A stretch of DNA of 64,000 nucleotides from Cyclina sinensis (lineage: Eukaryota > Mollusca > Bivalvia > Venerida > Veneridae), in assembly GCA_012932295.1 (NCBI GenBank), contig JAAONU010000002.1, forward strand, positions 23,157,770 through 23,221,769, written 5' to 3'. Below, in pieces: positions 20,437-49,000 of this stretch. Position 1 is the stretch's first letter. The number at the start of each line of letters is the position of its first letter. A program made the position numbers and the translations under genes. Below the pieces are notes generated by a model. It was not told the origin of the DNA. It did not search any database and saw only the letters and a list, made by a program, of their open reading frames with translations.

Positions 20437-21345
20437 CACATATCATATAAGCTGAAGCCTGGTGCACCATATCATATAAGCTGAAGCCTGGCGCACTATA
20501 TCATATAAGCTGAAGCCTGGCGCACCATATCATATAAGCTGAAGCCTGGCGTGTCATATCATATAAGCTGAAGCCTGGCGTGTCATATCATATAAGCTGA
20601 AGCCTGGCGCACCATATCATATAAGCTGAAGCCTGGCGCAAAATATCATATAAGCTGAAGCCTGGCGCACCATATCATATAAGCTGAAGCCTGGCGTGTC
20701 ATATCATATAAGCTGAAGCCTGGCGTGTCATATCATATAAGCTGAAGCCTGGCGCACCATATCATATAAGCTGAAGCCTGGCGCAAAATATCATATAAGC
20801 TGAAGCCTGGCGCACCATATCATATTAACTGAAGCCTAGCGCACCATATCATATAAGCTGAACCCTGGCACACCATATCATATAAGCTGAAGCCTGGTGC
20901 ATCATATCATATAAGCTGAAGTCTAGCGCACCATATCATATAAGCTGAAGCCTGGCGCACCATATCATATAAGCTGAAGCCTGGCGCACCATTTCATATA
21001 AGCTGAATCCTGGCGCAATGTGTCATATAAGCTGAAGCCTGGCGCAGCATATCATATAAGCTGAAGCCTGGCGCACCATATCATATAAGCTGAATCCTGG
21101 TGCAGCATATCATATAAGCTGAAGCCTGGCGCACCATATCATATAAGCTGAAGCCTGGCGTGTCATATCATATAAGCTGAAGCCTGGGGCAGCATATCAT
21201 ATAAGCTGAAGCCTGGCGCAGCATATCATATAAGCTGAAGCCTGGCGCACCATATCATATAAGCTGAATCCTGGCGCAATATATCATATAAGTTGAAGCC
21301 TGGCGCAGCATATCATATCTGCTGAAGCCTGGCGCACCACTCATT
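20437..21345. repeat. 29-bp minisatellite, about 31 copies
   Basis: The unit is CATATCATATAAGCTGAAGC followed by ctggcgcac. The last four bases vary between units (cacc, gtgt, caaa, catc). The order gtgt-gtgt-cacc-caaa-cacc occurs twice running in the first third, so a 145-bp higher-order repeat is present. The array lies about 375 bp upstream of the TspO-like exon. Confidence 0.95.
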
Positions 21346-23228: not shown

Positions 23229-23619
23229 TTATACACCAGCTTGATCTCTTACAGAGATTTTGTCATATGAACTGTTTGTAGGACAAATATTAGTTGCTGC
23301 GTTGTAATCTGATGCATTAGGTATCATGATAACTCCACTTTCTAGTGAGAAGTCAGGATAGTTATACTCGGTATCGTCCGGAGTGTTCCGGTCAGCTTCT
23401 ACGTTGTACGAGAAGTCGGGATAGTTATACTCGGTAGAATCCGGAGTGTTCCGGTCAGCTTCTACGTTGTACGAGAAGTCAGGATAGTTATACTTGGTAG
23501 AATCCGGAGTGTTCCGGTCAGCTTCTACGTTATACGAGAAGTGGGGATAGTTATACTTGTTGCAATCCTGACCAGGGCCGCTTTCATTCGCCTCTGCTGG
23601 TTTATGCGAGTACTTGCAT
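23229..23619 (-). CDS. Gene D exon 9: cytoplasmic tail with tandem tyrosine units
   Basis: Begins in phase 2 with RCKYSHKPAEANESGPGQDC. It then has three full copies of a 21-residue unit (YNYPDFSYNVEADRN plus TPDST) and a fourth partial one, and ends SSYDKISVRDQAGV before TAA at 23231-23229. The acceptor cttatag fits the frame, whereas an acceptor 24 nt upstream would run into a stop. Confidence 0.8.
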
Positions 23620-26600
23620 CTATAAGTTCAGTTCGACATTTCTGATAAATTGTCAAAACCAATAGAAAGGAGCTGTTTGTTTTACCTAGAAGATAATGTG
23701 AGAGCATAAATCAAAATGATTTTGTTAAAAATGTCCTGTTCTGAAAATTTACAAACATGTACTGGCACGTTCGTGCTCATGTTGATATATAGGACTTCCT
23801 GAGCAGGTAGCTAATTGAATCATTAGTTTTACTTGTAGATTTAGAACTTACTGTTTAATCTTACCTGTTTCGAATGATCACAGCACTGATTACACCGCTA
23901 ATCACGACTAGTGTAAGTGTGATACTGACTCCAATAGTGACGTCAGATCGAGTGGCTTCATCTTAACGACGAGAACAACAACAGCAACAACAACAACAAA
24001 ACTTTAAACTATTGACGAGCATTAAGTGTTCGCATTTTTAAACGTTTAATCGTTATTGTTTTCATCATTACTACGAGTTTTAGATTTACTAGAATGACTT
24101 TTTGTATTACGATTTGAAGATGCAGAAATATCAAATATATGAAAGTATTGCAAGACAATTAGTTTTAAGTGTAAAATTTGCTCTAACATTTCATGCGTAT
24201 CATTGTCTAATTGTCTAAACGGCTGCTGTATTCAACGTATTTGGTAGACATTAAGATTAAAATTAAGATTGGCCTTACCTATGTCAGAGATTGGATGTGT
24301 TGGTTTCAAGGAATTCTTGAATTCTTCATTACTTGGTAAAGTTGAATCTTTGAAAGATGATGTGGTAATTGCCTTTGCAAAATATGGCCAGAGTTATCAC
24401 AAAATTATTTATTGTCTGCAAGGTTTATGGACTTCTTTCCTAGTATATCATTTTTGAAAAAGAAATGTTTGAGTCATACAAAAACAAGTTAACGCGTTTG
24501 CCTATTATAATTATCTCATTTCGAGAAGTGTACAAATACGAGCTAAAAATAAGATAATAAACCAACAGAAACATAGACAGTCTAATTGATTGTTCTACAA
24601 ATCTAGATCCCTTTTCCTCTTTAATTGCGGGAGACCACTAAATGCCAACTATTTTTGAAAAAGAAATGTATCATAAGTTTAATCGTACCCTACTGTGATT
24701 CTGGCAAATCTGTAAACATTAAAATTCCTGAAATACCTCTGTCATGGCAATTCAAATTAGATTAAAACATGACATGTAGTTTATATAAGGTTGTGTGTAT
24801 TTGCGCGCATTTCAAAACCCTTTAATACATCATATAAAATTAAAATAAAACATAACCTAAGTACTTTACGAAATCAAGTTTCGAATCTACAATTCGAGGT
24901 TTTGCAATATGAATAAATTAAATTTGTTTGTTTTTTCTTCTTGATAACTGGAAAGGTAAAATACTTTTCAAACTATCATATTACCTTCATGGCATAATAT
25001 CTTCAACTCTCTCTCTGTGGTAAAAGTGAGAGGATACTTGTTATGGTTACTTTCTTTTATACTGCCGTACTTCAAATTGACGAGATATTCCGGATGCGAT
25101 CCTGGAATATATATAAAAGTTATATGAATACTCTTCACACATTCTTAGAATATGAAATTGATCAGTCCTAGAGACTATGCTTCAGACTTTGCCCTTGTGT
25201 TATGTAGCCCAAATATTTCCGATAAATTGAAGGGTTACATTATAATTTCAGTTTTTGTATAGCAATATTAAAACAGGTCACACTATGAGTAAATTACACA
25301 AAGATAGTGTCTTTTACACCTTCATACTCGCCGCCAAATTAAATATTATAAAAAATAATGACTATTCTAATGGGATATATAATGGTTGAAAAAACAAAAC
25401 TAAATCCTACTAGAGAGATATGAGTCTTGTCTGCAGACGACATCCATTTTAAAAACACCTGTCCATACAGAAGGGCCTTCGGAACTAGGCGTTGTTGGGA
25501 TGTCAGAATATATCACTGGGTATCTTCCTTCTTCAAAACAGGTCCGTGCAGCCTTCAACCATGCATTGTCTCTAGACGTAGGCACATTAACGATTGTCCC
25601 ATTTCCTGAAAATATACTATTCATATAGATGATTGTGTGATGATAGATGACACTTTATATATACTCAACAAACTATGAAATGTGTCTAGCAGTGAACTTT
25701 TTTTTTGTTATCCAGTAATTTTTGAAAACACAGTGCTTACGATTTTGTTCAAGAACAAGTTCATATTGTTATCAAGTCATTTTTGAAAACACAGTGCTTA
25801 CGATTTTGTTCAAGAACAAGTTCATATTGTTATCAAGTCATTTTTGAAAACACAGTGCTTACGATTTTGTTCAAGAACAAGTTCATATTGTTATCAAGTC
25901 ATTTCCGAAAACACAGTGCTTACGATTTTGTTTAAGAACAAGTTCACATTTGAAATAAACTGTTGGAAATTAAATACTAGTAACTAGACGGGCAGACTAG
26001 TTCGTAAATCGGCGATACACAGAAAACAATCACATAATAAATCTGCAGTGTCCATTAACATGGCAGACATAATTCGTTATTCTATTTCAGTGGCAGCAAG
26101 TTAAGTGACCTATGTTGGTATGCCATACCGGTTCTGCAAATGGTGGCAAATTTTTCACTGCACTTATTCCATTCCATTGCCTTTGAATTACGATCGATAC
26201 TAAGACACGTTTCATCTTCGTCTGCTGACACAGCGTTCGATTTTTCCAGGGCTAAAGAAACGTTATCGTCTGCAATAAACGTTCTAGCGTTTTTCTTTTA
26301 GAACAATATATGATTACACAATGACCGTCATAGTGGACGGACAATTTTTTATCAGTTCTGCTCATGATTTATTCGGCGTTCAAACTATTCGTTAAAACTC
26401 TTCAAGAAGACAACTGCCTATCTTATGCTATGTTAATTGAAAGTGCTATTAGACCATCTTCTTATCCAATACAGCTCTCTAGATACACGTGCTTTTAAAT
26501 TTGGTATGTTATGCTAGTTAGGATTGAAAGTAACCAACAGTACAACTTGCCCGTCTCGGAAATATTCAGCATGAGTCAACTTAAATACGGAGAGAGAAAG

Positions 26601-30961: not shown

Positions 30962-31565
30962 CTAAACTTTTGACACAGACTTGCTCTGCATACCGTACAC
31001 ATTATCAGACATACAGTGTGTGAGCTTATGTCCTACATGATTGTAAACGCCTTCATCCATTCTGACAGTTTTGTTATAGATACTATCTGCGTTAGGATAG
31101 TTTGACGTTTGATTCCCATCAGCACTGGAGTCGTATGTGTCGTCAATCAAATGGTCGTGTGATTGCACAGTGTTAGGTTTTCTCCGTGTGAACGTATGGT
31201 CGTATATTTGATGTTGGTCGTCGTACAGCTGATTATATACATGGTCTGTCTTTCTTTCTCCATGTTTCTGATGTGTTGATGTAGTATCGTAAGTTATGTG
31301 GTCTTCAGTTGAATCGTTATTTGTGTTTTCAATAGTATCATCGTAGGTTCTATTTTCTACAGCTGAGTCGTAGGTTCTGTGGTCGTAAGTAACTTCGTAT
31401 GTTCTGATCTTCGTGCCACCTTTCTTTACATGTGGCTCCAGGACAAAGTAGCTATTACTGTCTTGAGAAGTGGTTGCCATAGTGATATCAGGGTAGCTGT
31501 AGTTATTTTCAGCACCATGAATAGTCTCTTCGTTGTTATTACATTGTGTTGTCACTTGTTTGTGC
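30962..31565 (-). CDS. Gene C exon 10: long tyrosine-rich cytoplasmic tail
   Basis: Starts [18 protein letters not shown] after acceptor tttttccatag in phase 2. It carries [15 protein letters not shown], repeated TYD motifs, [21 protein letters not shown] and VYNHV, and ends QSKSVSKV before TAG at 30964-30962. About 200 residues, polar, with no domain recognised. Confidence 0.85.
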
Positions 31566-34257
31566 CTATGGAAAAAGTAAGACGATTTTAACAATGATGG
31601 TAATGTTGAACGATTCAATTAATATTTAAAGATGATTTCTTTAAAAATTGCAAACAAATATAGTTGACGAAAACATCAAACTGATATCAGACTGAGAACC
31701 GTAAAGATGATAATGCAAACATTATACGCTTAATCCATACGGCATAATTTTATGTCCATTAGATATAGAAAAATAATGTTACTTGTTACCTTCTCTTTAA
31801 AAAACCAATAGTCAGTACAATGAAGGCGACAGTGATGACCAGAGCTGCTACAGACACTCCTAGTGCAATATACATCCCCCCAGTATCATTATCGGTATCT
31901 AGATAAACATAAAAACTTCAGCTACAGACACTCCTAGAGCAATATACATCCCCCCAGTATCATCATCGGTATCTAGATTAACATAAAAACTTCAACTACA
32001 GACACTCCTACAGCAATATACATCCCCCCAATATCATCATCGGTATCTAGATAAACATAAAAACTTCAACTACAGACACTCCTAGAGCAATATACATCCC
32101 CCCAGTATCATCATCGTTATCTAGATAAACATAAAAACTTCAACTACAGACACTCCTAGAGCAATATACATCCCCCCAGTATCATCATCGGTATCTAGAT
32201 TAACATAAAAACTTCAACTAAAGATTCAGAAAAAAAATCTTCTACGTTTTTTTCCTCACATTTAATTCGTTTATCATTATGTTTTATACGTTAAAAACTA
32301 ATATCATACTCATAAATACTTCAAAATAACTTTTCAACTTTTGAACCGACTATATTTTTTATTATTTCGGCTTTCTCACAGATAAGTTAATGGCAGTTTT
32401 AATGCGTCAGTTGTTCAAACCAACAATCTTCAGACTACAGATAATAATGGTCCACCAGTCTTTTAAGAAGAATAACAATTCCACATCTTTTGTAAACATG
32501 TAGCGTTATAAAGGTGTCTCGACAGCGTCAAAGCAACGGGAGTTATTTTTTTAGTAAACAATCCCTTTTAGTGTGAAGAGAAATTCCACGCCTCAAGGTC
32601 TGCCTTTGATAAATTTATTTGAGAAATGGCATGAAAGTTTTACCTGCAGTGCTTGTAACATTAGAATATGGTACTGATGTCGGTATTAGGCGGCTTCTGT
32701 CTTTTGTTGTTGTCTGCCATACATCACCTCCACCACCTAGGATGTTTTAGTACAAAGACAACAGAATTACTCTCAATGAGAACGTTGGTACAAAAGGAAA
32801 TGGTTACATGTACAAATTAATGATTATTATTGTAATCACTGCTTAAACTAAATATAAATAAATATCTAAATCATAAATAATATTTATGTCCATACCTTTT
32901 CCACAAAGGACACGTTTCTCAGCACTCGAGTTTGTAAATTGAACTTTGATCTGCCCTGGTTTGTGTTTATACAGATAACCGTATAACTTCTGGTCATTTC
33001 TGCGCTCAGCTACAATGTAGACCGTATATAATTGCATCTATTATATGATAAGTCAATATAAGTAAAAAAGGAAAGACCATGTTTTTGCTATGACCTACAC
33101 AATTTTGTAGCGTATGTAAGTGACATAAACAAATACATCACATTTGTATAAATAGTTTCTACTTCTGACTACATAATTTGTTTATTATATTGGCAAGCTT
33201 AACGTGACGTATGTAATATTCAAGCACTTACTTGGAATATTCGAATCGTGTTTGTATGTTACAAGTGTTTTGAAACATCCTGTCCACAGCTGAGATCCTT
33301 CTCGCTTATTTACTTGTTTAGAATCAGTGAAGTTTGTTGGAGCATAACTTTTACTAAAGCAACCGTTTGCTGCATTCAGCCATGTCCTGTATTCATCATC
33401 TTGTAAAGTTACAACATTGACACCTGAAACGTATTAAGACGCTTGGTAGCATGGACAGACCCAAGTCGTGCTAGATTTGACACGTGGTACACAGTACCTC
33501 GATCTGTGGGCGTCATTATTAACCGCATTATGATTTAATGGGTTTCATACCTAAATCTTATGATACGTGTTTTTAGTGATATTAAAAGACTTTTGGAGTT
33601 TATTTTCAAATACGACAGATGCTTTATTATGTGCAATAAGTTTGAAAGGATTATTTCAACGAAGATTAAAAAACACAAGTCATACATACAGTAACGTATT
33701 GTGAGTGAATGAATATCTTTTACAATTTCGTACTTAAAAGAACAAAATGTGAATTAAAAAATTGTTAACAAAAATATCGACCAACAACTTCAGAAATATA
33801 CAATAAAAAAGTCATGTGGCTAACACAACGTCATGTAGGTCTTGTCAACTTGAAAAATAGATTGAAACAAAACAGCCTCACCATTGTCACACATGCTTAA
33901 GAGTGAAGTTGCGCATCCTTGCCAATAGTATGTCTTTGGAATTGCCGGATCAAGACAAAGACAGTCCTTGTCACCAGAAGGTCCTGGCAGCGGAGATATG
34001 GTACTGTGGTCAACTGTTTGTAAATGTGATCAAAATAGCTGTCTTTTACATATGCAGTATTAAACTTCAGTATAACAACAGGATTGTTTACTTTAAAAAA
34101 AAAACACAAGAAGAAAATACTAACAACAATACCAAACACAAGAAGAAAATACTTAACAGCAATACCAAACAAAAGCAAAAATAAAAAAGGCTTTTGTGGT
34201 CACAGTAGCTTCATATGAGCCCTCTGTGAGTGGTTCTGTGACCCAGAAACAAAGTAC

Positions 34258-37300: not shown

Positions 37301-40300
37301 ATAATTTAATAGAATGTATATGAGTCAGAAAAAGGTCGGATTTGTTAAATGAATATAATATTTCTCCATTGAAAAATTGATTGTTTGATTACATGCATTT
37401 GTCAAAATACTCAAACAGGATGGTACACCATGCCAACAGGAGTAGACCAAAGCATTTAAAACATACTGAATTTTAAATATTCTACCAGTAGAAAACTAGC
37501 TAAGAATAAGAAACAAATAAATATTAAAATAAATCAGTCTGGAGAACATTTACTAAAATTAAAAACAAAGAATCTGCATCTTATATTGGTAAATATCTGT
37601 TTCGAACGCTTAGCTAGCATTTTGAATTACAACTTACTTTTTTGTACTTAGCTATACCAGTAAGGTCGCTACAAACCTATATATTCAAACACCCTGACAA
37701 CCTGGTAGAAGCCTGTCCATATCTCTTCATTGTCTGGAACATCTATATTTATGTTTACAACACTGTAAACAGTTGGCTTATATTCTATAGCAGTTAGCTT
37801 TGGTGTGCCTATGGTGCATTCGATACCTGCCTCAGACCACTGGAACGAGCCATTGGAAACGAAGAAAGCGGCTGTGAATGGAAACGTACCATCAAATATA
37901 TAGAATGCGGCTGTGAATGGGAGGTGCCGTCGCACATGGAAAAAGATGCTGTGAATGGGAACCTGCCGTCGTACATGTAGAAAAAAGGTTGTAAATGGGA
38001 ACATTTCGTCAGACATGTAGAAAAAGGCTGTGAATGGGAACATGCCGCAGTACAATGTAGAAAGGGGCTGTAAATGGGAACGTGCCGTTGGACAAGTAGA
38101 AAGATGCTGTAAATGGGAACATGCCGTCGCACATGTAGACTAAGGCTGTAAATGGGAACATGCCGTCGTACATGCAGAAAAAGGCTGTAAATGGGAACAT
38201 GCCGTCGTACATGCAGAATAAGGCTGTAAATGGGAACATGCCGTCGTACATGCAGAAAAAGGCTGTAAATGGGAACATGCCGTCGTACATGTAGAATAAG
38301 GCTGTAAATAGGAACATGCCGTCGTACATGCAGAATAAGGCTGTAAATGAGAACATGCCGTCGCACATGTAGAATAAGGCTGTAAATGGGAACATGCCGT
38401 CGTACATGCAGAAAAAGGCTGTAAATGGGAACATGCCGTCGCACATGTAGAATAAGGCTGTAAATGGGAACATGCCGTCGTACATGCAGAAAAAGGCTGT
38501 AAATAGGAACATGCCGTCGTACATGCAGAAAGATGCTGTAAATGGGAACATGCCGTCGCACATGCAGAAAGATGCTGTAAATGGGAACATGCCGTCGCAC
38601 ATGTAGAATAAGGCTGTAAATAGAACATGCCGTCGTACATGCAGAAAAAGGCTGTAAATGGGAACATGCCGTGATATATGTAGAAAAAACGTTTGTGAAT
38701 GGGAACATACCATCGCAAATGTAGACAGAGGATGTGAATGGGAAGGTGACGTCTGACATGTAGACAGAGGCTGTGAATGGGATCGTGCCGTCACACATGT
38801 AAAAAGAGGCTGTGAATTGAATCATGTAGTTTGACATGTAGGAAAAGGCTGTGAATGAGAACGTGTCGTGAAACATGTAGAAAAAGACTGTGAATAGGGA
38901 TCGTGCCGTCGGACATGTAGAAAGAGGCTATGAATAGGACGTGTCATTGGACATGTAGAAAGAGGCTATGAATGGAAACGTGCCGTCGTACATGAATAAA
39001 GAAGTTGTATATGGAAATTTTCCTACGGACATGTAGGAAGAGGCTGTGAATTGGACGTACAATTGGACCTGTAGAAAGAAGCTTTGAATAGAACATGACG
39101 TTGTACATGTATAAAGAAGCTGTGAATGGAAATATGCCGTCGGACATGAAGAAAGAGGTTGTGAATTGGGACGTGCCGTCGGACATGTAGAAAAAGGCTT
39201 TAAATGGGAACGTCCTTTTTGACCCGCAGGAAGAGGCTATGAATGAGAACGTGCTGTCAAACATATAAAACAGACTGTGAATTCCAACTTGCTGTTGGAA
39301 GGGTACATAGAGGCTGTTAATGAGAAAGTGCCGTTAACATGTAGAAAGAGGCTGTGAATTGGGACATGTAGAAAGAGGCTTTGAATAGTAACGTGCCTAT
39401 TGGACCTGCAGAAAGAGGCTGTAAATGGGAACGTGCTGTCGGACATATAGAAAGAGACTGTGAATGGGAACATGCTGTTGGACAGGTACAGACAGACTGT
39501 TAATGGGAACGTGCCGACGGACATGTAGAAAGAGTCTGTGAATTGAAACGTGCCGTCGGAAATGTACAAAATATGCTATGAATAAAAACATGCCATTGGA
39601 CATGTAGAAAGAGGCTTTGAATGGAAACGTGCTATTGGCCCTTTAGAAAGAGGCAATGAATGGGAACATGACGTTGGACAGGTACACAGAGCTGTGAATT
39701 GAAATATGCCGTCAGACATGTAGAAAGAGGCTGTAAATGGAAACGTGCCGTTGGACATGTAGAAAGGTAGAACGAGGCTGTGAATGAAAACGTTCTATTG
39801 GACATGTAGAATGAAGCTGCGAATGGAAACTTGATATCGGACATGAAGAAAGATACTGTGAATGGGAATATGATATTTGATATGTAGAAAGAGACTGTGA
39901 ATGGGAACGTGCTATTTGTTATTTATAAAGAGGCTGTGCATGGGAACGTGCCATTTGTCATGTAGAAAGAGGCTGTGAATGGGAACGTGCCATCGGAGAT
40001 GTAGAAAGAGGCTATAAATGGAAAAGTGCTAATAAACATAAAGAAAGAGGCTGTGAATGGGAATTTGACATTATATATGTAGAAAGAGGTTATTGGGTAT
40101 GTAGAAAGAGGCTGGAGATTGGAATTTGACATTCTACATGTAGAAAAAGACTGTGAATTGGAATGCGTCATTGGATATGTAGAAAGAGGCTGTGAACTGT
40201 TACATGCCATTGGATATATAGAAAGATGCTGTGAATGGGAACGTGCCATTGGATATGAAGAAAGAGTCTATGAAAAGGACTGATATTTGAATTTAATGCC

Positions 40301-43002: not shown

Positions 43003-46000
43003 CTAAAGTGATAAAAACAGTTGCCGAAAATCTGATGACAAGCCTTAATTAGAATTGAAATTATTTATAAGAAGTTGTTGTTTATTTCTGTTCAACAAGT
43101 ATTATAATACACAGACACTTTTGGTAAAGAAATTGTACTTGTTTCACCTATGCGAAGCCATAAGGCACACATATACCAAGTTTGGTGCCTGTCTGAGAAG
43201 GTTTCAATAATTGCCAAAATTCACAAATATGTCTTATAAATATATTTATAAGGCATTTCAGTGAATTTTAGAAATTGTACAAACTTTTAGAGATTAAAGT
43301 TCGAGCAAACTCACTTACATATGTAAGATAAGACTTGGAGATACAAATATGTTTCGAATAAATAAGTGACAGTGATTATAAAACATACCTTTTTATCCAC
43401 AATACGGCTACAGTTATCACAACCAGAATACCCACAGTGACCAGTACAACCAGCAATGGACCAACTGACGCCTCTACAATTAATAAATCTGACAGTATGC
43501 GCGTCTTGAAAAAATAAATCATTAATAACAGTAATAATAATAATTATTATTCTTATTATTATTTTTATTATTATAATTTTAAATATCATATTTTATTCAG
43601 AAAAAAACATTTGCATCTCATTAGTACACCATATATGACACTCGTACATTGATATTTTATAGTTTTGTGTAAAGAATTATACCTTTTATAATGCCTGCAC
43701 ACAGAACTTGTCTATTTGAATTGTGTTCTTCTGTGAAGGTAATAATGTACTCGCCATTTTCTTCTGTCAAGAAACCATACTGTATCACACCTGATTCGTA
43801 TTCAGCTAAAATACGAGTCGTAAAGGAAGAACTTATGTTATGGCGAATCAGTCTTTGGCTATTGATAAACTTAATAATCACTCCGGCTTACTTACAGCAT
43901 TCTGAAGAAATACCTAATGCTCTTAAAACTTAAATGTATATTTGAAACGACTTTGACTATATTCTTATTATCTGTTATCAGTGTTAAATGGTGTATGTAA
44001 GTCTATTAATAAGCGAAGATATATCAAAGAACTGTGGTTTTGCTTTTACTAATATTGTTGACATATTTATAACATTATTGCGAAAAACACACTGGCTGTA
44101 TGGTGGCTGATTTGTGCCATGTCGTATTGGCGTGTTTGAGGGGTGAAAATGCGATAACACGAAAATATTATTTTAGCGTGGAGGGCGAAATTTGCAATTT
44201 TGGCGGGTTTTCGCCTGGCGACCTTTCCCCCGCCACATGAAAACACGCCACATTATATGTGCCGTGTCTGTACCTAAAGGTTGTCATATGTTTGTATGGC
44301 GGGGCGTAAACGTGCCATGCGAAAATACGACAAATTATAAGTTTGTCGTGTTTTCGCGTGGCGACATTTCGCTCCGCCACACGAAACACGCTACATTCAA
44401 TGTGTCGGGTTTTTTCCCTTTAATTTGTCATGTCTTTTTATTTTTGCCGCGCCAGGCAAAAATAAGAAAATGTAAATGTGTAATATTTTTGCCTGGCGCC
44501 CCGCCACACAAAGATGCGACATTGCAATTAATTTTTTCGCGTTACGGTCACGCATGCGCACACAAATTTTACATATGTTTACATGATACAAGGCTGATAA
44601 GTTAAATTCAAATATATAAACATAATTCTTAAGTTCAAATAAAAGAAACTCAGGATACTATCATTGTTATTACTCTCCATTTTTTTCTGTATGTGCAGCA
44701 TAATGTGTAGTTAGGCGAAAAAACTAGGAGATTTTTTTGTGTTTTAGCGTGGCGCCCCGCCATGCAAAGATTGCAGGCAAAACACGAGATTCAAAATGTG
44801 GCGTGTTTTTGCTTGGCGGGCTTTCGACCCACCAGGCGAAATCAAGATAAATTGAAGGTAAAAACACGACATATAGAATGTGGTGCGTTTTCGCATGGCA
44901 CGCGAAACCGCGATAAAGTTATGATTTGTGGTATTTTCGCGTGGCAGGTTTTCGCCCCGCCAGCAAAGACACGACATACTGTTGGTAAAGACAAAACACA
45001 TAGAATGAGGCGTGTTTTCGTGTGGCGGGGCGAAAAGTCGCCTGGCGAACACACGCCAAAGATACAATTTATCATGTTTTCGCGTGGCGGGTTTTCCCGT
45101 TTTCGCCCTGTCACGCGAAAAAAGATGATGAAATATGTTCATACAATCTATAACAAGAAATATCAGCAATCCATTTGATGAGTCTCTAAGTCAGGTAAAA
45201 AAAAACATGAAGGCCGATTAAAAATCTGCATTTCAACAGTAGGACTACTCTGGCATGTACGCCCAGAACAGCTGCCTTTCTACCGTAGGACTCGGACATG
45301 TACGCCGGAAACAGCTGCATTTTTACCCTAGGACTCAGACATGTACGCCCAGAACAGCTGCATTTCAACGCTAGGACTTAGACAAAAGCGCCGAGATCTT
45401 CAGCCTTTCGACGCTAGGACTCAGACATGTACACCAAGAACAGCTACATTTCTATCCAAAGACTCACACATGTTCGTCAAGAACAGCTGCATTTCGACGC
45501 TAGGACTCCGACATGTACTCCGAAAACTGCTGCATTTCGACGCTAGGACTCAGACATATACGCCAAGAACAACTACATTTCTACCCTAAGACTCAGACAT
45601 ATACTCCGAGGACAGCTGCATTTCTACCCTAGGAACGAGACATGTACGCCGAGAATAGCTGCATTTCTACCTTAGGAATTGACATGTACGCCGAAAACAG
45701 CTGCATTTCTACCCTAAGACTAAAGCATGTACGCCGAGAATAGCGGCATGTCTACCTTAGGACTGAGACATGTACGCTGAGAACAACTGCATTTCAACAT
45801 TTTAACACACATCTATGACGAGAACAGATGCACTTCTGCCCTAGGACTTAAACATATACGCCTAGAACACCAGCATTTCTACCTAAGGACTGAGACATGT
45901 ACGCCGAGAACAGCTGCATTTCTACCTTAGGACTGAGACATGTACGCCGAGAACAGCTGCATTTCAACATTTTAACACACATCTATGACGAGAACAGATG

Positions 46001-49000
46001 CACTTCTGCCATAGGACTAAAACATATACGCCGAAAACACCAGCATTTCTACCTAAGGACTGAGGCATGTACGCCGAGAACAGCTGCATTTCTACCTTAG
46101 GACTAAGACATGTACGCCGAGAACAGCTGCATTTCTACCTTAGGACTGAGACATGTACGCCGAGAACAGCTGCATTTCTACCCTAGGACTGAGACATGTA
46201 CGCCGAGAACAGCTGCATTTCTAACCTAGGACTGAGGCATGTGCGCCGAGAACAGCTGCATTTCTACCTTAGAACTGAGACATGTAAGCCGAGAACAGCT
46301 GCATTTAAACATTATAACACACATCTAAGACGAGAACAGATGTTCTTCTACCCTGGGACTAAAACATATACGCACAGATTAGCAGCATTTCGACTTTTAG
46401 AATAATTCAGACTGGTACGCCGATAGCTACATTTTGACACTTAGACTGAGACATGTACACCGAGAACAGCAGCCTTTCGACACAAGTTGTCAAACATGTA
46501 CGCCGAGAACAGCAGCCTTTCGACGCGAGGTCTAAAACATGTACGCCGAGAACAGCTGCATTTAGACACTAGGACTCAAACATATACGCCCAAATCAGCA
46601 ACATTCCAACACTATGACTCGGACATGTACGCCGAGAGCAACTGAATTTTGACATTAGATCTTACTGATAGGAAAACTTGCTATGTTGACTATTTTAATC
46701 ACTAGTTGGAAATTCTGAAAATACAACTACTTCTAAATTTATTAATTTTTACCTTTCTCATTGTACAGCGTATGATGGTATATTACGGGACTTCTTATAA
46801 CATTGGTCCACACTGTTTCATTTTTTTCCTGACTAGTCAGATTATTTGAAAATGGTAACATCAATGCTCCGGATGAAAAGCATTCAGTGGAAGTGCCAAT
46901 CCAAGAATGTTTTACTGACGGACTGGCTGTAAGAAGATACTTTCCAGCTTGAAAAGAAAAGCAACAATAACAGTTATACTTTACACAAATATCTGATATT
47001 TGTTAACATGGTTTTATAGTTCCTGCATAGGTAAAAATGACGTTTTTTTTCATGTCATAAGGGGAAAAACGTTTTCTTCAAGATACCTCTGTTCATGTAC
47101 AATAAAACGTATTAAAATAAATCAATACACTACATATTTGTGAACAGTGCTTGTTTAATGTACGTATGTGAGGAGATAGGTGGTTATTTACATTTATCTA
47201 AGACGCGATGTTAGTTTCAGTGCAATGTTCGTTTTGGCGTGAAGACAGAATGCCATTCAGTTTTCCCTTTCCTGTTCCTCTACCAACCTGACTAAAATAA
47301 GTGATTACTGCTGTCATAAAACATTTTTAAGTTTGGTTGAACATATCTAAATTCTAATTTTTAATTCAACTTTGACATATGTCCAGACAGAACTTGACAT
47401 ACCACAAGACAATTTTCATCGTAAATAGATTAACGTACAAAATTCACATGCAACAGCATTTGAATCGTTGCAGTTTGCCCATGAAAACTGCTTTCTATCT
47501 TGATTGACTTGAAGACATGACATGCTCCTTTCACTGCTTTGCATGTGTACTTTGGCTTGGTTATGACCAGCTGAAATAAAAGAAAACCCTGTCGATTTTA
47601 CATTACTCTTCTAAATATTCGCACTAAAATCTTTTCAAACATACATTTTATCTTATAAATTCTAGCCGTGTCCTAAGAATCTCTCGTAAATACAACAGCA
47701 GAAATATTATTTTGTATTATATTATATGCATTAAATTAGAAACAACGACATTGAAACAACAGCTCATAGTAAACTTTAGTAAATCCATTCACAACTCTCT
47801 AATTTGATTATAAAAATCGAACTGAAATTCTAAGCACTTATTGCTATGGTTAACCTCACTGTCAAATGTAGAACAGAAAATACAAGAACATTGAAAGAAA
47901 AGTAACATCGTTATTCCAAAAACCTTTCTTTAGATATGATATGTTTAAACATCATCTCCAGTTATTAAAAGTGTTTTGTATTTGATCTAAAACATAATTG
48001 AGGGGCATCTGTGTCATATGTCGTGTACACTTCAAGACTGAAATCTTCGTTTGTTAAATATAAGTTAGTGCAATTTTTGAATTTGTAAACAAGTATGTGA
48101 TATGTTGAGCAAATATTGCCTTATTTCAAAAAAAAATATTTATTCAAAAAATAAAAATATAAAAATAAAAGGGCAAGTTAAACGAATATCCACCAGAGAA
48201 TATCAATATTCACCTCGGTCAATATTTATACCTTCTGGTTGATATCACACCATATTTTACATTTTAGTTAATAATTGTATAAATGCAGTTTTCTTTTGCG
48301 TCTGTCAGTCAGTAAGTACTTACAATTGTGTAAATTTTTGGCTTTGGTTCCTTATTTCCAAGTCGCCATTCATTATCCTCATTATCCATATTGGAAATAT
48401 ATAGAATAAGTTTGTTTTTCAGAAACTGTATTACAGTTTAAACGTATTATGTTTTTGAGCATTTATCTTAGAAAAATTGTTAAGTTGTTATACAATGCAA
48501 ATTCTATATATACGTGTACATCAAAAGGCAGTTCACTATCAATTTTATAAGCCTAGAACTCCTCTTATTACCATTATTTTTCTCTGCACTGTGCATTCTT
48601 ACTCCGTGGTTTTAAACCACTGTAATACTTGTGATAAACATTGTTGTTGTTACAATAAAAAAAAATAGTGCGACCTAAATAACTGTAATGCGTGAAAAGT
48701 ATGCATTTTTAATCTTCCTCTTAAATACTAGCTTTTTCAGTATCACTTACAGAATTTGGAAACTAGCTTCATGAAACTTAGTGTTACATGGTTAGAACTA
48801 TATTCTTATTCTATATTCTTGATCACATTTGTATTTGAAAGTGCCAACCTTTTTGCTACAATCTGACTATCGATAACACTGTTTTTCATACCGTGGGTGT
48901 AAACAGATAGGAAACCAGGTCCACCACACACCACGCCCTGTTGGTACGTACATTCACTACTGCAGTTTGGATTCATGGCTGATGTATTACTTACTGACCA

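What the first reader, a model, noticed from the sequence alone, without database searches (positions are those of the whole stretch)
31790..32220. A second junction array in the same gene: five 74-bp copies of the TM-exon acceptor, predicting a tail-less isoform
The true TM exon begins at 31898. Four further copies of its acceptor plus first 48 nt lie directly upstream. If a copy is used, translation runs through 13-16 hydrophobic residues (MYIALGVSV..EVFM.I) and stops at the TAG that belongs to the next acceptor. The product would lack most of the membrane helix end and the whole ~200-residue tail, giving a soluble, weakly anchored or decoy receptor.
Basis: partly seen in the sequence, partly recalled or inferred. 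Interest (0 to 1): 0.85.

Follow-up and report, generated by a model that had tools for sequence, protein, structure and literature searches.

The report
Tandem-repeated splice junction in clam receptor
In a receptor-like gene of what looks like a clam, the spot where one exon begins has been copied several times in a row; the one matching spliced product found ignores the extra copies, so this looks like a bivalve example of a repeat type known from amphioxus rather than a proven switch to a shortened receptor.

Summary
In detail: five 74-bp units (31848-32217), minus-strand gene, each 23 nt of intron end plus 51 nt of TM-exon start (reader: 48); only the last (exon start 31898) continues into the exon. 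Acceptor positions and predicted stops are as stated. Two paralogous loci carry the same array with 6 and 11 units. The tail-less isoform is not supported: the one close database product (P0001, 94.7% identical, uninterrupted ORF) uses the last acceptor, and two searches for the truncated form found none. All 19 upstream acceptors of the three loci would give a stop at least 109 nt before the TM/tail junction, which predicts nonsense-mediated decay. Upstream exon-like and intron-like parts vary at similar low rates (2.0% and 2.5%), with three frameshifted units, so coding constraint does not show. Best reading: a "mirage" minisatellite, a tandem repeat spanning an intron-exon boundary, described in amphioxus, whose extra acceptors are mostly skipped. 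The gene has a second, more degenerate one at exon 2. Known kind; no bivalve case in my searches. No RNA reads were available, so a minor or regulated isoform stays open.

The parts
31848..32217 (-). Array of five 74-bp units; gene-sense unit = 23 nt intron end (with AG) + 51 nt of TM-exon start
31790..31898 (-). True TM exon (109 nt); its first 51 nt and the 23 nt before it are the last unit of the array
   Evidence: gene model; P0001 carries the same junction
31899..31972 (-). Upstream acceptor copy, exon-like start 31972; stop 109 nt before the TM/tail junction if used
31973..32046 (-). Upstream acceptor copy, exon-like start 32046; stop at 183 nt
32047..32120 (-). Upstream acceptor copy, exon-like start 32120; stop at 257 nt
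32121..32194 (-). Upstream acceptor copy, exon-like start 32194; stop at 331 nt
32218..32224 (-). 7-nt stretch before the first unit, TCTTTAG here and TCTGTAG in the two paralogs, matching the TCTGTAG that ends a unit; likely slippage point
32644..32736 (-). Exon 8, the donor side of the junction
30962..31565 (-). Last exon: tyrosine-rich cytoplasmic tail, 200 residues, and stop
37863..40063 (-). Second junction array of the same gene: 39-bp units covering the acceptor and first about 30 nt of exon 2
37677..37871 (-). Exon 2, start of the mature ectodomain; used from its last acceptor in P0001
40845..40932 (-). Exon 1, signal-peptide-like start

Best explanation
A mirage-type minisatellite: a stretch spanning the end of intron 8 and the start of the TM exon was duplicated in tandem, probably by slippage between two TCTGTAG repeats, and grew to 5, 6 and 11 units in three gene copies. 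Each unit carries a complete-looking acceptor. The spliceosome mostly joins exon 8 to the last acceptor, the only one within 109 nt of a real donor, so the normal receptor is made; occasional use of an upstream copy gives an early stop and a message expected to be degraded. Shown: the array, its units, its presence in three loci, the predicted stops, and one product with the last junction. Inferred: the slippage origin, the preference for the last acceptor in this very gene, the reason for that preference, and the decay of the rest.
For: Array and unit anatomy. Same junction array in 3 of 3 loci found, with 5/6/11 units. P0001 reads straight from exon 8 into TM exon and tail and from exon 1 into exon 2, so both arrays are skipped; its DTDNDTGG has the Asn that in the window gene only the last unit encodes, the four upstream units encoding Asp. 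19 of 19 upstream acceptors give a stop at least 109 nt before the TM/tail junction, g3 judged in local frame only. Upstream units: 11 substitutions in 437 intron-part sites, 19 in 969 exon-part sites, 3 indel columns. The best donor-like GT in a unit matches 5 of 9 consensus positions against 6-8 for the nine real donors. Flanking TCTGTAG in 2 of 3 loci and TCTTTAG in the third. Amphioxus mirages are reported not to disturb regular splicing (PMC3087553, PMC3902484, passages), and in human CBS 844ins68 the distal of two copied junctions is favoured (PMC2630376, passage).
Against: P0001 is one product from an unnamed source, 94.7% identical to the window gene; whether its own gene carries the arrays is not known. 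No RNA reads were seen. All 22 units keep the AG, though with so little variation that says little. The array acceptors are as pyrimidine-rich (9-10 of 16) as several real ones (9-14), so nothing in the site itself explains why upstream copies would be skipped, and no RNA structure does: z 0.17, 53 of 100 shuffles fold as well, with the last acceptor predicted slightly less accessible than the others. Units are not more alike within a locus than between loci (mean 3.69 vs 3.11 differences), unlike the within-cluster homogenisation described for amphioxus. Intron-part and exon-part rates were compared by eye, without a test.
Confidence: 0.78

Rival explanations
1. One reading: upstream acceptors are used on purpose to make a receptor without its tail, soluble or weakly anchored.
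For: Acceptors intact in 22 of 22 units. In 15 of 19 upstream units the same hydrophobic end and stop would result. The truncated end MYIALGVSVVEVFMFI is hydrophobic (mean Kyte-Doolittle 2.17, scale recalled).
Against: No such product. All stops lie at least 109 nt before an exon junction. In g3 three units are frameshifted and one reads past the stop. The stop comes free with the acceptor TAG, so its presence is no sign of selection.
Confidence: 0.06
2. Regulated unproductive splicing: the array is a poison-acceptor bank, and the share of upstream acceptor use sets how much receptor message survives; unit number tunes it.
For: Every upstream acceptor predicts an early stop (19 of 19); the array is kept in three loci, with different numbers of units.
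Against: No evidence of use; no sign that the exon-like parts are constrained; two of the three loci carry other apparent defects, so their arrays say little about function.
Confidence: 0.1
3. Assembly artefact: the copies are an error of long-read assembly.
For: Tandem arrays are prone to copy-number errors (recalled).
Against: The same array at the same junction in three separate loci with locus-specific substitutions and unit numbers. Exact unit number may still be wrong; raw reads were not available.
Confidence: 0.03
4. The units serve as small exons of their own, a step towards intron gain as proposed for mirages.
For: The intron-gain model is proposed for amphioxus globins (PMC3087553, passage).
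Against: Best donor-like site in a unit 5 of 9 against 6-8 for real donors; no extra residues at this junction in P0001.
Confidence: 0.03

Closest known systems
Mirage minisatellites of amphioxus (Adh3, troponin C, globins BflGb6 and BflGb9, PGBD5)
   Same: Tandem repeats spanning an intron-exon boundary; [quoted passage not shown] many units carry splice signals; regular splicing reported undisturbed; unit number varies (6 and 3 in two BflGb6 haplotypes); unit length in the reported range of 10-160 bp (PMC3087553 and PMC3902484, passages).
   Different: Different phylum (bivalve-like, inferred); every intact unit carries an in-frame stop in the acceptor itself; two such arrays in one gene, shared by three gene copies; no RT-PCR and no allele comparison here; no within-locus homogenisation seen.
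Human CBS 844ins68
   Same: A duplicated intron 7/exon 8 junction (68 bp); the distal site is strongly favoured and mostly normal mRNA is made, with traces of another transcript in the nucleus (PMC2630376 and PMC1334203, passages). One passage calls the sites donors; the cited Romano 2002 title says 3' splice site.
   Different: Only one extra copy, a polymorphism in one gene; here 4 to 10 extra copies in each of three loci.
Uncharacterised receptor-like proteins of Mercenaria mercenaria (LOC123559442, -443, -445, -456)
   Same: Same gene family: 36-46% identity; two of them covered over 98-99% of the query.
   Different: Proteins only; whether their genes carry the arrays could not be seen.

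Membership tests
Mirage minisatellite | Tandem repeat whose unit spans an exon-intron boundary | tested here: met
   23 nt intron end + 51 nt exon start per unit
Mirage minisatellite | Unit length within the reported 10-160 bp | tested here: met
   74 bp here; range from PMC3087553 passage
Mirage minisatellite | Regular splicing is not disturbed | tested here: inconclusive
   P0001 uses the last acceptor, but it is one product of a 94.7% identical gene whose own array is unseen
Mirage minisatellite | Length instability (unit number varies between haplotypes) | tested here: inconclusive
   5, 6 and 11 units among three paralogous loci; alleles or individuals not testable
Mirage minisatellite | Homogenisation inside the cluster with boundary units left out | tested here: inconclusive
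   g3: units 1-5 differ by 3-5 from the consensus, units 7-10 by 0-1, as expected; but mean difference within loci 3.69 is not below that between loci 3.11
Alternative-acceptor isoform pair (functional tail-less receptor) | Messages or proteins of the second isoform exist | tested here: inconclusive
   None in two protein searches; no RNA reads available
WSC-domain protein | Pfam PF01822 above its gathering score | tested here: not met
   16.1 bits against 27.8 for the window model; P0001 no family, P0003 14.8 bits

The most novel reading that the evidence does not exclude
Acceptor choice in a length-variable array toggles the receptor between a signalling form with TM helix and tyrosine-rich tail and a form ending in a bare hydrophobic stretch, which by its layout (small and polar residues, then 16 hydrophobic residues up to the C-terminus) could even serve as a GPI-anchor signal; unit number, which differs between gene copies, would set the ratio. 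GPI use is conjecture from recalled layout rules; no predictor was run.
Probability: 0.05. Interest if true: 0.75.

Novelty: new member of a known kind. Interest (0 to 1): 0.36.

Why it matters
If the reading holds, mirages are not confined to cephalochordates, and one gene offers two of them, of different age, in three loci with 5, 6 and 11 units of the 74-bp type: a natural series for asking how the spliceosome picks one of many near-identical acceptors, and whether such arrays seed new introns or exons. If the upstream acceptors prove to be used, it would be a repeat-length dial on a receptor. As it stands it is a well-documented curiosity with an explanation already in print for another animal group.

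Tried and rejected
RNA structure as a means of hiding upstream acceptors: rejected, z 0.17, and the last acceptor is predicted no more accessible than the others (0.34 against 0.40-0.54 mean unpaired). Polyadenylation inside the array: no AATAAA or ATTAAA between the start of the array and the end of the TM exon in 3 of 3 loci; those found lie upstream of the array (only these two hexamers sought). Units as exons: donor-like sites weak. The 61-bp array at 25705-25950 near an exon of the neighbouring gene was read and is not a junction array. Structure prediction on five sequences gave mean pLDDT 30.4 and was not used. Sequence search of solved structures with P0002 gave only a chance-level hit (E 0.85). 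Species: not named by any tool; the assembly size (902.86 Mb) is close to that reported for the clam Cyclina sinensis (902.8 Mb of contigs, 903.2 Mb final; PMC7251785, passages), but identity is not established. A survey of how common junction arrays are in this genome could not be run, and the family members lacking the array were not found (unanswered calls below).

Full report
Observation. TRF gives period 74, 5.1 copies and 95% matches at 31848-32224, and in gene sense (minus strand) the units align without gaps in the window. A unit is 23 nt of intron end (TTGAAGTTTTTATGTTTATCTAG) and 51 nt of exon start. The last unit runs on into the real TM exon, 31898-31790, with a good donor. The four upstream exon-like starts are 31972, 32046, 32120 and 32194.

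Gene. The spliced model has ten coding exons: a signal-peptide-like exon 1, an ectodomain, a TM exon and a 200-residue tyrosine-rich tail. No Pfam family passes its cut-off; WSC is a weak hit for the window model (E 0.014, 16.1 bits against 27.8). Its named relatives are uncharacterised proteins of the clam Mercenaria mercenaria at 36-46% identity; hence 'clam-like', by inference. Other exons of the family lie on the same strand in the window.

Paralogs. A DNA search of the window's own genome gave 6 matches at three places, and a tail-protein search gave 3 matches, at those same three loci. All three have the 74-bp array at the same junction, with 5 (window, g1), 6 (g2) and 11 (g3) units, and all three have the 39-bp array before exon 2. 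Some unit variants are shared between loci (unit position 17 in units of all three; position 60 in g1 and g3), and units are not more alike within a locus (3.69 differences, 80 pairs) than between loci (3.11, 151 pairs). So the array probably had several units before the loci duplicated, and unit numbers changed later. g2 has AC instead of AG before exon 7 and g3 has a 146-nt exon 4 that breaks the frame; these two may be decaying, or the assembly may be wrong there.

Origin. The 7 nt before the first unit are TCTGTAG in g2 and g3 (TCTTTAG in g1), the same as the last 7 nt of the unit. Slippage between such short repeats is a plausible start (inference).

What would upstream acceptors do? In all 19 upstream cases (4, 5 and 10) a stop follows at least 109 nt before the TM/tail junction; in 15 of 19 it is the TAG of the next acceptor, in one (g3) translation runs past it into the following unit, and in three (g3) an indel in the unit changes the frame (g3 in local frame only). 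By the recalled 50-55 nt rule these messages are NMD targets; the rule was not tested for bivalves. Exon-like and intron-like parts of the upstream units vary at 2.0% (19 of 969) and 2.5% (11 of 437), plus 3 indel columns in the exon part; no test was run and the numbers are small, but there is no sign of coding constraint.

Is there evidence of use? The protein database gave one close product, P0001: 602 aa, contig of 3927 nt, source tag 'lgn', 94.7% identical to the window model over 602 aligned positions. Its ORF runs across all nine intron positions, so it most likely comes from RNA (inference; the tail search found no intron-free copy of the tail in the assembly). It joins exon 8 to the last acceptor and exon 1 to the last exon-2 acceptor. 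It has the Asn of DTDNDTGG that only the last unit of the window gene encodes. It is a mosaic relative to g1-g3, so it may be another allele, copy or close relative, and whether its gene has the arrays is unknown. A search scored on the truncated end returned P0001 alone among 17 candidates; a search with a 93-residue truncated fragment returned no candidate. These are absences in a protein collection, not in transcriptomes.

Why the last acceptor? Nothing in the sites separates it: pyrimidine content is 9-10 of 16 for the array sites and 9-14 for the gene's real acceptors, and structure does not help. The remaining difference is distance to the donor: only the last copy makes a 109-nt exon. 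I therefore favour exon definition, as inference. The human CBS 844ins68 allele, a copied junction in which the distal site is strongly favoured, is a precedent (PMC2630376 and PMC1334203, passages).

Known kind. Tandem repeats over intron-exon boundaries are described in amphioxus as mirages, with regular splicing kept and unit numbers varying (PMC3087553, PMC3902484; passages only). My searches for such arrays in bivalves or under related terms listed no bivalve case; they cover open-licence full texts by word match only. So: a new member of a known kind, in a new host group as far as searched.

Second array. The 39-bp array (37863-40063) repeats the exon-2 acceptor and about 30 nt of exon 2. 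With one motif I counted 38 acceptor-like sites including the real one; 6 are in frame, 3 of these open to exon 2, again counting the real one. Use of the nearest copy would add 13 residues in frame. It is more degenerate (about 75% matches) than the 74-bp array and so probably older.

Limits. No RNA reads, no alleles, no second species' DNA. The genome-wide frequency of such arrays and the state of more distant paralogs could not be tested because the search machine did not answer.

Noticed in passing
37863-40063: 39-bp array covering the acceptor and start of exon 2 of the same gene; use of the nearest upstream copy would insert 13 residues in frame. Present in all three paralogous loci; skipped in P0001.
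   Followed up: partly
45247-46649: 43-bp array, about 33 copies, upstream of this gene and between two exon-like stretches of a neighbouring gene; similar 43-bp arrays occur upstream of both paralogs (g2, g3).
   Followed up: no
23347-23557: 63-bp repeat, 3.3 copies, whose length is a multiple of three, in the region of the downstream neighbouring gene; may code a repeated tyrosine-containing tail segment.
   Followed up: no
L008 / L013 (C2:22868100-22887900): The g3 gene copy has 11 units and an exon 4 of 146 nt instead of 145 that breaks the frame.
   Followed up: partly
L007 / L012 (C2:23378000-23397800): The g2 gene copy has AC instead of AG before exon 7.
   Followed up: no
20439-21339: 29-bp array, about 31 copies at 90% matches; relation to any gene not examined.
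   Followed up: no
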